From contig JAUWTR010000022.1 in assembly GCA_030614645.1 (NCBI GenBank), positions 1 to 10,051 of the forward strand: a stretch of 10,051 nucleotides of DNA, given 5' to 3'. The DNA is from Candidatus Aminicenantota bacterium. GTDB lineage: Bacteria; Acidobacteriota; Aminicenantia; Aminicenantales; Aminicenantaceae. A model generated the notes under the pieces. It had not been told where the DNA came from. It searched no databases and saw only the letters and a list, made by a program, of their open reading frames with translations. A program made the translations under genes and the position numbers. Shown here piece after piece: positions 7,203-9,908 of this stretch. The first letter of the stretch is position 1. Every line of letters begins with the position of its first letter.

Positions 7203-8483
7203 TTATTTCCCAAGCTGATTTGGAATCCACATAAACGTCTCTGGCAAATAAGTTACAATCAACAGGATTATCAGCATAGCCACGATTATAGGAATTACTT
7301 TAGGAGTGACCTCCCTAATACTTTTCCCTGAAAGGCCGCAGGAAACATAGAGAGTAGCTCCGTATGGCGGGGTGATATATCCGATTGCCAGATTAACAGT
7401 AGCAATGATCCCAAAGTGGACAGGATCTATGCCAAAGCTTGCGGCAACCGGAAACAGAATAGGCATAAAAACTATAATGGCTGAAAAACTTTCCATAAAC
7501 ATACCGATCAGCAGAAGGATAAAATTAAGAAAAATTAAAAATAACGTCTTGCTCCCAACGTTTGCCTGGAGAAAGTCTCCCAGTAACATAGGCAAGTGTT
7601 TTACTGTCACCAGCCACGCAAAAAGCATTGCAGTTGCAGCAATAAACATGACCTTACATGAAGTCTCTGCAGACTTTAGAAATATCTCCGGCAGATCTTT
7701 GATGGATATTTCTTTATAGATAAAAAGCCCTACTACTAATCCATAGACTACTGCTACCACAGCAGCTTCTGTAGCAGTGAAAACACCGCTTAAGATGCCA
7801 ATTATAATAATAAAGGGCAGCCCCAGACCTGGAAGGGCTATTTTCCCAGTCTTAAAAACCCGTCGTAAACGAAATTTTGTTACTGCCAGATATGCCCTGC
7901 CTCCTTTTAATGCATGCAGATAAGATACCACCATCAAGCCTGCTCCTATCAGGACTCCGGGGATAATCCCCGCTAAAAAAAGACGCGCGACTGATGTATT
8001 CGTTACATATCCTATCAGGATCATCATAATACTCGGAGGTATTATCGGTCCTATTGCACCGGCTGCGGCCTGGAGTGCTGTTGCAAAACGCATATCATAG
8101 CCTTTTTCTTTCATGGCAGGCAGCATTATTGCCCCCACTGCAGCTGTGTCTGCAGTGGAAGAACCGGAGATCCCGGCAAACACCATGGAAGCAAGAACTG
8201 TTACCATTCCCAGACTGCCTCGAATAAATCCAAAGCAGGCTCCGGCAAAATCAACAACCCGTTGCGAAATGCCTCCCCTGTCCATTAAGGCTCCAGCCAG
8301 CATAAAAAGTGGTAAGGCCATAAGCGGCCAGGAGTCAAGGGCAGTGAACATCCTCTGTGGCACTAAAACCAGAGGAAGGGAATTGTCCCCAATAAGAGCA
8401 AACAGAGAGCCTATCCCTAAAGCAAAAGCCACCGGCATCCCGATAAGGAAAAAAACTAGCAAAGAAATAAATAGAACTAACAC
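7203..8483 (-). CDS. dctM: TRAP transporter large permease subunit (DctM)
   Basis: This 426-residue, very hydrophobic protein (about 12 membrane segments) is the ion-coupled translocation subunit of a TRAP transporter in the inner membrane. Signatures include GMPVAFALGIGSLFAL (15-30), the ALPLFMLAGALMDRGGISQRVVDFA stretch (56-80), SGSSTADTAAVGAIMLPAMK (106-125), the re-entrant loop GPIIPPSIMMILIGY (145-159), LFLAGIIPGVLIG (168-180), and NLAIGYITPPYGATLYV near the C-terminus. The length is typical of the family. The start is GTG at 8481-8483, overlapping the dctQ stop region by 7 bp; a weak AAGAG site (8492-8496) lies 8 nt upstream, so translational coupling to dctQ is likely. No frameshift or missing motif is seen. 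Confidence 0.96.
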   Translation of the reverse strand: MLVLFISLLVFFLIGMPVAFALGIGSLFALIGDNSLPLVLVPQRMFTALDSWPLMALPLFMLAGALMDRGGISQRVVDFAGACFGFIRGSLGMVTVLASMVFAGISGSSTADTAAVGAIMLPAMKEKGYDMRFATALQAAAGAIGPIIPPSIMMILIGYVTNTSVARLFLAGIIPGVLIGAGLMVVSYLHALKGGRAYLAVTKFRLRRVFKTGKIALPGLGLPFIIIIGILSGVFTATEAAVVAVVYGLVVGLFIYKEISIKDLPEIFLKSAETSCKVMFIAATAMLFAWLVTVKHLPMLLGDFLQANVGSKTLFLIFLNFILLLIGMFMESFSAIIVFMPILFPVAASFGIDPVHFGIIATVNLAIGYITPPYGATLYVSCGLSGKSIREVTPKVIPIIVAMLIILLIVTYLPETFMWIPNQLGK

Positions 8484-8959
8484 GTCTTATACTCTTTATC
8501 TTTCCGGAAAATTTTTTTAAAAGACTCTACGGTTATTAAGACTGCCTCAATCAACATCAGCAGCCCCCCCAGGGGAAACACCAAATAAACTAAAGACATT
8601 TTAATCTGTACAGCAGCAGAGACCTGATACTGACCGGCTAGCATAAGCCTCACACCGAATATGGCCACAACTGCAACATAAAAGATCACTAACACATTTG
8701 TAAAAATTTCTATTGCCCGGTTTATTTTCCAGGTTAATCTATGGCTGATATAATCGACTGCCAAGTGACTGCCCTTACGGATACAGATGGAGGAAGCCAG
8801 GATTATGATCCAGACCTGGCAGTAACGCGCTACCTCTTCGCTCCAGGATGGGGGGCTGTTGAAAATATAACGGGCAACTACCTGCAGAAAAACAACAGCC
8901 ACCATAGTAAAAAACAGGAATATGATCACAATTTCAGTAGCTTTCCGGATAAACTTCAT
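8477..8959 (-). CDS. dctQ: TRAP transporter small permease subunit (DctQ)
   Basis: This 160-residue protein has four predicted membrane helices (about 9-30, 47-62, 84-104 and 122-145), the normal DctQ plan. The diagnostic SPPSWSEEVARYCQVWIIILASSICIRKGSHLAVDYI stretch falls at residues 35-71, with the conserved W39, E41/E42 and basic turn before H65. DctQ pairs with DctM and is required for TRAP transport. The ATG is preceded by CAGG with about 8-nt spacing. It is the first gene of the run (order Q-M-P). A possible promoter reads TTGTAA (9015-9020), 17 bp, TAAAAG (8992-8997) on the minus strand, inside the heptad tract, but the match is only four of six bases in each box. Confidence 0.93.
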   Translation of the reverse strand: MKFIRKATEIVIIFLFFTMVAVVFLQVVARYIFNSPPSWSEEVARYCQVWIIILASSICIRKGSHLAVDYISHRLTWKINRAIEIFTNVLVIFYVAVVAIFGVRLMLAGQYQVSAAVQIKMSLVYLVFPLGGLLMLIEAVLITVESFKKIFRKDKEYKTC

Positions 8960-9062: not shown

Positions 9063-9266
9063 ATGAATAATTCAGGATTGAACTGGCATGCACCCTGGTA
9101 AATCCTGGAGAAAGCCATCCGGAACAACGCGGGCATGGTTTCCCGAGAGAATCTCGAGGAGAGCGTTGTGAGGACAGGAAGGGATTTCCCCGCTGGGGGA
9201 AATCCCTGTCTTTCGTAAGGACTTACCAGGGTGCATGCCAGCTCGTAACTAACCTGAATAATTCAT
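9063..9266. repeat. 204-bp element of nested perfect inverted repeats
   Basis: The outer arms are perfect 14-bp inverted repeats, ATGAATAATTCAGG (9063-9076) and its reverse complement (9253-9266). The inner arms are perfect over 19 bp (9083-9101 with 9223-9241), built on TGGCATGCACCCTGGTAA, and extend by TCCT/AGGA (9102-9105 with 9218-9221) past one bulged base. Inside lie two more hairpins: ACAACGC/GCGTTGT (9124-9130 with 9163-9169), which encloses TCC-CGAGA/TCTCG-GGA (9141-9160), and a long one at 9173-9210. The whole can fold as a stem with a three-way junction on either strand. No open reading frame of note lies within it. It is either a non-autonomous mobile or repetitive element (MITE-like) or a structured RNA or regulatory locus. 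It sits between divergent transcription units, 97 bp from the dctQ end of the spacer's other features. Confidence 0.85.
9173..9210. repeat. Strong hairpin inside the nested-repeat element
   Basis: GGGATTTCCCC (9181-9191) pairs perfectly with GGGGAAATCCC (9196-9206) across the loop GCTG. GACA (9173-9176) pairs with TGTC (9207-9210) after a 4-base bulge. Only TTT follows within a few bases on the plus strand and no T-run on the minus strand, so it does not look like a classic intrinsic terminator. Confidence 0.85.
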
Positions 9267-9323: not shown

Positions 9324-9338
9324 AAGAGGCTTAAACTG
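9324..9338 (+). promoter_or_regulatory. Ribosome binding site and probable CUG start of the ECF sigma gene
   Basis: AAGAGG (9324-9329) lies 6 nt before CTG (9336-9338). In the sigma frame, which is open from 9276, no ATG, GTG or TTG occurs before GTG 9420. That GTG would cut off the conserved start of region 2. The CTG gives an N-terminus, MKEKQLLIDARNGDHDAFKK, of exactly ECF type. Confidence 0.6.
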
Positions 9339-9908
9339 AAAGAAAAACAATTACTAATAGATGCCCGTAACGGCGATCACGATGCTTTTAAAAAGCTTAT
9401 TAACAAATATGAAAACCAGGTGGCAGCTACAGTGATCAGTATGTTAGGATACGGTCCTGAAGCAGAAGATGTGGGACAGGAAACCTTTATCCGTTTCTAT
9501 AAAGCGCTGGATAAATTCCGGGGGGAATCAAGCCCCGGCACATATCTGACCCGGATCGCGGTCAACCTGAGTTTGAATGAACTTAAACGCCGCCAACGCC
9601 ACAGAAAATTCTTTTATTCAAGATCGGAAGAAAAGATATCGAATTTGCCTGATCCAAAAGGATCAAACAACCACAATGAATTAAAAAAATTAGTACGATG
9701 GGGCCTGCAAAAATTGGAGCCTAAGTTTCGCACAGTCCTTGTTTTACGCACGATAAATGGATATACCAGCAGAGAAACTGCTGAGATATTAGACCTTCCC
9801 ATTGGAACAGTACTCTCTCGGCTGGCACGGGGACAGGCAAAGCTTAAAAAAATACTGGCTCCGCTTTTATGGGAAAAGAATGAACAAAAAGGGAATGGAG
9901 ATGAATAA
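9336..9908 (+). CDS. ECF-type (extracytoplasmic function) RNA polymerase sigma factor
   Basis: From the CTG start the protein has 190 residues, the normal ECF size. Region 2 spans about 16-90: DAFKKLINKYENQV, the GYGPEAEDVGQETFIRFYKALDKF stretch (38-61) that binds core polymerase and melts the -10, then GTYLTRIAVNLSLNELKRR (68-86). A linker rich in Asn/Ser/Lys (91-115) has no sigma region 3, as in all ECF factors. Region 4 (about 126-172) holds LEPKFRTVLVLRTINGYTSRETAEILDLPIGTVLSRLARGQAKLKK, including the helix-turn-helix that reads the -35. It presumably answers an envelope or environmental signal through the overlapping downstream gene. A start at GTG 9420 (162 residues) would lose the first helix of region 2 and is less likely. 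If the CTG start were wrong, the gene could be N-terminally damaged, but nothing else looks decayed. Confidence 0.92.
   Translation: MKEKQLLIDARNGDHDAFKKLINKYENQVAATVISMLGYGPEAEDVGQETFIRFYKALDKFRGESSPGTYLTRIAVNLSLNELKRRQRHRKFFYSRSEEKISNLPDPKGSNNHNELKKLVRWGLQKLEPKFRTVLVLRTINGYTSRETAEILDLPIGTVLSRLARGQAKLKKILAPLLWEKNEQKGNGDE

What the first reader, a model, noticed from the sequence alone, without database searches (positions are those of the whole stretch)
9063..9266. Nested perfect inverted repeats: an undescribed structured element
Two sets of perfect inverted arms (14 and 19 bp) enclose two further stable hairpins within 204 bp. This is far more symmetry than a promoter region needs. The sequence shows the pairing directly. 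Whether it is a MITE-like mobile element, a REP/BIME-type repeat or a structured RNA is inference. I do not recognise it as 6S RNA, SRP RNA, tmRNA, RNase P or a known riboswitch.
Basis: partly seen in the sequence, partly recalled or inferred. Interest (0 to 1): 0.75.

Follow-up and report, generated by a model that had tools for sequence, protein, structure and literature searches.

The report
Cross-phylum mobile hairpin DNA element
A short palindromic stretch of DNA between two genes is one of dozens of copies of a small jumping element that carries the same folded head in very distantly related bacteria and is found more often than expected just upstream of gene promoters.

Summary
The nested inverted repeats are real and not chance (RNA fold -111 kcal/mol, z -10.9). 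They belong to a multi-copy family: 46 covariance-model hits in this 2.1 Mb Aminicenantes-type assembly, in two subfamilies. The 133-bp head (three-way junction, loops GGGCATGGTT/AGA and CGCTGG) matches no Rfam 15 family and shows strong compensatory change: 570 double-changed cells versus 149 +/- 10 shuffled. It occurs patchily in Aminicenantes, Actinomycetota, Omnitrophota, Margulisiibacteriota and Patescibacteria (23 of 379 sampled), usually in several copies. Relatives with intact ends (mostly 200-243 or 320 bp) have terminal inverted repeats, and 13 of 30 such elements have an exact 9-bp target-site duplication (control 0.02), a signature of transposition. I read it as a non-autonomous transposon (MITE-like) with an unusually conserved folded head. 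Promoter patterns are enriched beyond its 3' end (37 of 166 cores, about 3 expected). Y1/RAYT transposases do not track it (12 of 23 positive versus 10 of 23 negative genomes); no autonomous partner was found. The window copy lacks the usual ends and any detected target duplication; a sister species shares it upstream of an ECF sigma gene. Whether the head works as DNA or RNA is open.

The parts
9063..9266 (+). Whole palindromic element as seen in this window; copy without the usual terminal repeats of its relatives
   Evidence: in the same genome only C370 (L009) matches the full 204 bp, at 92% (40 of 102 candidates were scored)
9063..9076 (+). Outer arm, left (ATGAATAATTCAGG), a short repeat also seen beside other copies
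   Evidence: 13 of 14 pair with 9253-9266; similar short repeats in the flanks of other copies
9253..9266 (+). Outer arm, right
9083..9101 (+). Perfect 19-bp inner stem arm, left
   Evidence: sequence; inside the 38-nt arm. Both arms differ from most other copies
9223..9241 (+). Perfect 19-bp inner stem arm, right
9096..9228 (+). Conserved folded head, match to covariance model R1 (87.6 bits; the window sequence is one of the 29 the model was built from)
9124..9130 (+). Helix P3, 5' strand (ACAACGC); most relatives have tandem G.A pairs here, this subfamily has A-T and C-G
9163..9169 (+). Helix P3, 3' strand (GCGTTGT)
9129..9140 (+). Most conserved segment GCGGGCATGGTT (P3 end plus internal loop)
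   Evidence: the loci were selected for this string, so its invariance is partly by selection
9140..9161 (+). Hairpin P4 (CCCGAGA gaa TCTCGAGG), approximate limits
   Evidence: covariation
9180..9207 (+). Hairpin P5 with conserved CGCTGG loop (9191-9196)
   Evidence: covariation
9333..9908 (+). Downstream gene: ECF-type sigma factor (frame read from 9333; exact start not determined); its side of the spacer and the element are shared with sister genome G001
   Evidence: Sigma70_r2, Sigma70_r4_2
8477..8959 (-). Upstream gene, divergent: TRAP transporter small subunit DctQ

Best explanation
The sequence is an old copy of a non-autonomous DNA transposon (MITE-like) from a family found across several phyla. 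SHOWN: relatives with intact ends (mostly 200-243 or 320 bp) have terminal inverted repeats (5'-GGAAGCATCnnnATTTCCGTGAT in several Aminicenantes and Actinomycetota genomes; 5'-C(A/T)GGAGTTCCCC in this genus), many with 9-bp target duplications; the family is patchy and usually multi-copy; and its members share a folded head kept by compensatory change. Copies are rare between convergent genes, and promoter patterns are enriched beyond the 3' end. INFERRED: an unidentified transposase supplied in trans cuts at the terminal repeats and inserts with a 9-bp stagger, favouring DNA just upstream of promoters; the head, folding on the top strand as a hairpin or cruciform, is recognised during transposition or its control, which would explain why it outlives changes of the terminal repeats. 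The window copy lacks those repeats and any detected target duplication and is probably no longer mobile; it has stayed upstream of the ECF sigma gene since before the split from a sister species.
For: Copies: 46 covariance-model hits in the own assembly (150 of 317 candidates scored), 1-63 per genome in 20 genomes reached through loci. Target duplications: exact 9 bp in 13 of 30 bounded elements, 16 of 30 with at most one mismatch, one of 8 bp, none of the other lengths tested, control 0.02 per set; own genus exact 9 bp in L085, L149, L151 (3 of 138 candidate pairs, nine offsets tried each, no shuffled control). Terminal repeat pattern in 12 of 12 handles (two of them apparently one genome), reversed-pattern control 0 in each. 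Fold: 134 double-changed cells vs 34.6 +/- 5.0 shuffled and at most 37 slid on a MAFFT alignment; 570 vs 148.6 +/- 10.1 on a model-fitted alignment. Top-strand preference: G.A cells 69 vs C.T 6, 265 vs 24. Promoters. Element in one of two orthologous spacers: L076 vs L097, L024 vs L148.
Against: No autonomous element or matching transposase was found: 657 + 756 longer repeat pairs in the fetched loci gave no 9-bp duplication. The window copy itself has neither the usual terminal repeats nor a detected target duplication, so its membership rests on the head and stem. 17 of 30 bounded elements have no exact 9-bp duplication. The unbiased scan over 180 cores was weaker (25 hits vs a control mean of 11.1, maximum 20). 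The two absent sites are not clean empty sites. Distances from stem end to -35 box spread widely (0-74 nt). A head conserved this far is unusual for a MITE and hints at a further function.
Confidence: 0.82

Rival explanations
1. The head is a structured RNA: the elements are transcribed, and the RNA (a transposition regulator, a guide or a host-acting small RNA) is what selection preserves; the transposon ends merely spread it.
For: Compensatory changes in all four helices. On the model-fitted alignment G-U cells outnumber A-C cells 88 to 45, and 226 to 181 in the outer stems. Strong top-strand G.A bias. Loops conserved across phyla (partly by selection of the loci).
Against: On the MAFFT alignment G-U equals A-C, 19 to 18. 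A part of the copies lies upstream of the neighbouring promoter and would not be in its transcript. No Rfam match. No transcription data available.
Confidence: 0.28
2. A REP/BIME-type repeat moved by a Y1 (RAYT) transposase through a single-stranded hairpin.
For: Palindromic, intergenic, multi-copy; three Y1 transposase genes in the own genome; one Y1 gene about 0.7 kb from the element in L101.
Against: The own Y1 genes do not carry this element; at least two have other inverted ends. 200-320 bp with 9-bp target duplications rather than a 20-40 bp REP (definition from the abstract of PMC3733652).
Confidence: 0.05
3. A host regulatory module upstream of promoters (insulator, supercoil sink or upstream activating structure), kept by host selection; the repeat nature is secondary.
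For: A sigma-70 pattern pointing away lies 40-119 nt past the core in 10 of 26 own cores and 27 of 140 others, about 0.5 and 2.8 expected (background). All 7 GGGGAACTCC-N(11-18)-TTGAC sites in the own genome (control 0) abut an element (6) or a remnant of one (1). The element upstream of the ECF gene is retained in sister genome G001.
Against: Patchy distribution, different neighbouring genes, mixed orientation. Target duplications show that many copies were inserted. Most cores have no such promoter pattern nearby. A target preference for promoter-upstream DNA explains the placing equally well.
Confidence: 0.12
4. A chance palindrome or assembly artefact.
For: Several copies end at contig ends, as repeats do in short-read assemblies.
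Against: z -10.9; 46 copies; the same family in many independent assemblies, including a single-contig chromosome (CP070825.1).
Confidence: 0.01

Closest known systems
MITEs (miniature inverted-repeat transposable elements) of bacteria
   Same: Short, terminal inverted repeats, fixed-length target-site duplication, many dispersed copies
   Different: A folded internal head with conserved loops and compensatory stems is shared across several phyla and across different terminal repeats, whereas MITE interiors are usually lineage-specific (recalled). No autonomous partner found
REP / BIME repeats and RAYT transposases
   Same: Palindromic, intergenic, strand-specific hairpins, mosaics of repeats (partly recalled)
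   Different: Much longer; 9-bp target duplications; no association with Y1 transposases
Enterobacterial RU-type small mobile sequences (PMC2759123 and PMC2229807 seen only in a search listing with the start of the abstract)
   Same: 103-168 bp repeats in multiple intergenic regions, described there as MITE-like
   Different: Described for enterobacteria in that listing; no head of this kind known to me (recalled)
IS66-type insertion sequences (recalled, not tested)
   Same: Terminal GTAAGC-like ends and target duplications of about 8 bp (recalled) resemble some ends here (GTAAGCATC)
   Different: The duplication here is 9 bp; no IS66 transposase was searched for

Membership tests
MITE (non-autonomous DNA transposon) | Terminal inverted repeats | tested here: met
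   Relatives: 30 bounded elements; TIR pattern in 12 of 12 handles with control 0. The window copy lacks these particular ends
MITE (non-autonomous DNA transposon) | Target-site duplication of fixed length | tested here: met
   Exact 9 bp in 13 of 30 (control 0.02); own genus L085, L149, L151. Not found at the window copy
MITE (non-autonomous DNA transposon) | Short, many dispersed copies | tested here: met
   Elements with duplications are 200-398 bp and 320-321 bp; 46 hits in the own genome; 1-63 per genome
MITE (non-autonomous DNA transposon) | Autonomous relative with the same ends | tested here: inconclusive
   None among 1413 longer repeat pairs in fetched loci; whole genomes not searched for it
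REP/BIME with RAYT | 20-40 bp palindrome | tested here: not met
   200-320 bp relatives; definition from the abstract of PMC3733652
REP/BIME with RAYT | Co-occurrence with Y1/RAYT transposase | tested here: not met
   12 of 23 positive vs 10 of 23 negative genomes
REP/BIME with RAYT | GTAG or CGTC tag at one end | not tested
   Ends were compared with TIR patterns only
Known Rfam RNA family | Match at gathering score | tested here: not met
   None in the window; none over the elements of 15 further loci (the only two matches there are tRNAs elsewhere in L073); low-threshold scans gave only weak matches far below gathering
Structured RNA (new) | Covarying helices | tested here: met
   does not separate RNA from single-stranded DNA
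Structured RNA (new) | Transcript | not testable with these tools
   No RNA-seq available

The most novel reading that the evidence does not exclude
A mobile element family spanning several phyla whose conserved cargo is a folded nucleic acid rather than a gene: a structured RNA (or a strand-specific DNA hairpin device) that directs its own spread to the DNA just upstream of promoters and passes between unrelated terminal-repeat sets and phyla, including the reduced genomes of Patescibacteria.
Probability: 0.25. Interest if true: 0.88.

Novelty: new variant of a known kind. Interest (0 to 1): 0.66.

Why it matters
MITE interiors usually decay and are confined to a lineage (recalled). Here one folded head is kept by compensatory change in bacteria from Aminicenantes to Patescibacteria while the terminal repeats differ between groups, which implies that the fold itself does something. 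The family gives uncultivated phyla a countable mobile element with defined ends and a 9-bp duplication. Its enrichment next to sigma-70 promoters also makes it possible to ask directly whether a transposon targets, or reshapes, promoters.

Tried and rejected
Rfam at gathering and at low thresholds: nothing credible. Viral contigs: 0 exact pattern matches; plasmid and phage records: no match to one relative's element (L082). RAYT as mover: the own RAYT genes do not carry the element, no association in Patescibacteria. Pairs of copies in G158 and of terminal repeats in G360 as autonomous elements: the genes between them are not transposases by my reading of the translations (no Pfam run). Longer repeat pairs with a 9-bp duplication: none of 1413. 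An HDV-like or other ribozyme resemblance was considered from memory and dropped: no Rfam support. GGGGAACTCC as a stand-alone regulator site: all 7 sites followed by a -35 box abut an element or a remnant, but some end motifs occur without a head, so this stays open.

Rows dropped and biases: A2 (29 sequences) was picked by eye from the loci then held. L055 (5' part unrelated), a partial L022 copy and L059 (masked stretch) were left out of A1. L091 and L138 match the pattern inside long reading frames and look like chance. A3 used 100 of about 290 loci held. One search filed some own-genome copies under 'others' (loci L001-L008, held twice); one search recounts with the right labels. In one search, 49 of 190 cores fell 'inside' a reading frame of at least 85 codons under a crude gene caller; many of these frames are short, but I did not exclude real genic insertions, and the remaining 47 cores had no gene within 600 nt on one side in the fetched stretch. 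G014 and G360, and G008 and G347, gave identical match coordinates and are probably the same genomes under two handles.

Full report
What is there. The window (G000:C137) belongs to a 2.1 Mb assembly in 394 contigs; most records that carry the head in the named genome collection are Candidatus Aminicenantes, and I take the assembly to be one. Between a divergent dctQ gene and an ECF sigma gene lies a palindrome with a perfect 19-bp inner arm pair, an imperfect (13 of 14) outer arm pair and two hairpins. It folds far better than shuffles (z -10.9).

Copies. blastn in the own genome listed 45 matches (40 of 102 candidates scored); besides the window itself 21 are at least 113 nt long at 85-96% identity, and only contig C370 matches the full 204 bp (92%). 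Aligning copies showed that the core is conserved while the flanks change abruptly, with further repeat modules joined on either side. Of 60 genomes searched with the window element, own genome included, 11 match; outside the genus the matches are 70-84% identical and cover only parts of the head.

The head. Two alignments support one fold: stem P1, helix P3 usually with tandem G.A pairs, hairpin P4, hairpin P5, with loops GGGCATGGTT/AGA and CGCTGG. On a plain MAFFT alignment of 29 sequences, 87.1% of cells pair and 134 cells changed on both sides (shuffled 34.6 +/- 5.0; slid structures at most 37). On the model-fitted alignment of 106 matches the numbers are 88.1% and 570 (148.6 +/- 10.1; slid at most 152); 27 of 30 pairs have a change on both sides, a measure that 3 of 500 shuffles reached. 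That alignment leans towards the structure. At the tandem position 68 of 106 rows have GA/GA and 16 have AC/GT, the form of this window's subfamily. G.A mismatches far outnumber C.T (69 vs 6; 265 vs 24), so the top strand is the folded one. G-U against A-C is even in one set (19 vs 18) and two to one in the other (88 vs 45), so RNA and single-stranded DNA are not separated.

Distribution. No match in viral contigs, plasmids or phages.

Ends and target duplications. A scan of 180 cores for flanking direct repeats gave 25 hits against 11.1 (maximum 20) for mismatched pairs, and the clear ones shared ends. With those ends as the definition, 30 bounded elements were found: 27 with the head by pattern and one more, in L126, with a mutated head. 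Exact 9-bp duplications flank 13 of 30, 16 of 30 with one mismatch allowed; one element has 8 bp, no other length from 5 to 13 appears, and the control is 0.02. They occur in Aminicenantes and Actinomycetota loci. The terminal pattern occurs in 12 of 12 handles searched and never in the reversed control. In the window's own genus the ends are C(A/T)GGAGTTCCCC...GGGGAACTCC(A/T)G; three 320-321 bp elements there have exact 9-bp duplications (L085, L149, L151), L027 has one mismatch, and most of the 138 candidate pairs examined have none. Two of the 30 bounded elements, in L148 and L295, have the same kind of ends but another interior, a second repeat, so interiors and ends are exchanged.

Position. 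In the own genome the string GGGGAACTCC-N(11-18)-TTGAC occurs 7 times (control 0), with spacings of 13-17 nt; six sites abut an element and the seventh a remnant. A sigma-70 pattern pointing away lies 40-119 nt beyond the core in 10 of 26 own cores and 27 of 140 others, against about 0.5 and 2.8 expected from the background; on the 5' side in 1 of 26 and 12 of 140. Measured from the end of the predicted stem, 19 of 172 elements have such a promoter within 40 nt on the 3' side and 5 of 172 on the 5' side; the distances spread from 0 to about 74 nt. They are 9-12 nt in seven elements (L004, L027, L084, L121 of the own genus; L054, L209; and L135 of Margulisiibacteriota), whose ends are unrelated between these groups. 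The crude gene context of 94 intergenic copies is 32 divergent, 53 co-directional and 9 convergent. A target preference for promoter-upstream DNA, or selection, could cause this; most copies show no such pattern.

The window copy. It lacks the GGAGTTCCCC ends and no target duplication was found. Sister genome G001 carries the same element with the same 3' flank, 97% identical over the sigma gene side, but a different 5' flank; that side was not found in G002. It is probably an old copy whose ends were replaced by another repeat.

Mover. Y1/RAYT transposases are unlikely as an obligate partner, and no autonomous element was found in the fetched loci. A 9-bp duplication is typical of cut-and-paste DDE transposases (established knowledge); the family is unknown.

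Literature. Searches listed no description of such an element; I read the abstract and section list of PMC3733652 and saw the other papers only as listings. Most subscription papers are not held, so this is weak evidence of novelty.

Verdict. A MITE-like transposon family, new as far as I can tell, with an unusually conserved folded head and a cross-phylum range. The mobility is well supported; the function of the head and the mover are open.

Noticed in passing
L295 (G360) about 499-790 and 2091-2402; L148 3899-4188; fragments in L031, L033, L062, L235: A second repeated interior (GACATTGAAGATTTAGCCTTC...) lies between the same kind of terminal repeats in L148 and L295, and parts of it occur beside or fused to heads elsewhere: a second cargo sharing the ends.
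   Followed up: partly
window 9063-9076 and 9253-9266; own-genome flanks: ATGAATAATTCAGG is a short dispersed repeat of its own that often borders other repeat modules in spacers.
   Followed up: partly
L046 2324-3160, L047 180-1180, L048 149-910: Three Y1 (RAYT) transposase genes, at least two with their own inverted ends by eye (TTCGAGGGACATCATACTTAATT; GGGGACGGGC...); a small palindrome with the first kind of end sits next to an element end in L235.
   Followed up: partly
L026 988-1100, L234 472-593, L025: Chimeric or truncated copies: halves of the two subfamilies joined, or the head partly deleted between intact outer ends.
   Followed up: no
L128 and L154 against L013 and L015: The outer end modules are swapped relative to the head in some copies, as if the head had flipped inside the palindrome.
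   Followed up: no
L178-L196 upstream flanks: A terminator-like hairpin module (AAGTGCCGATG...CATCGGCAATTTTT) repeatedly precedes type D copies.
   Followed up: no
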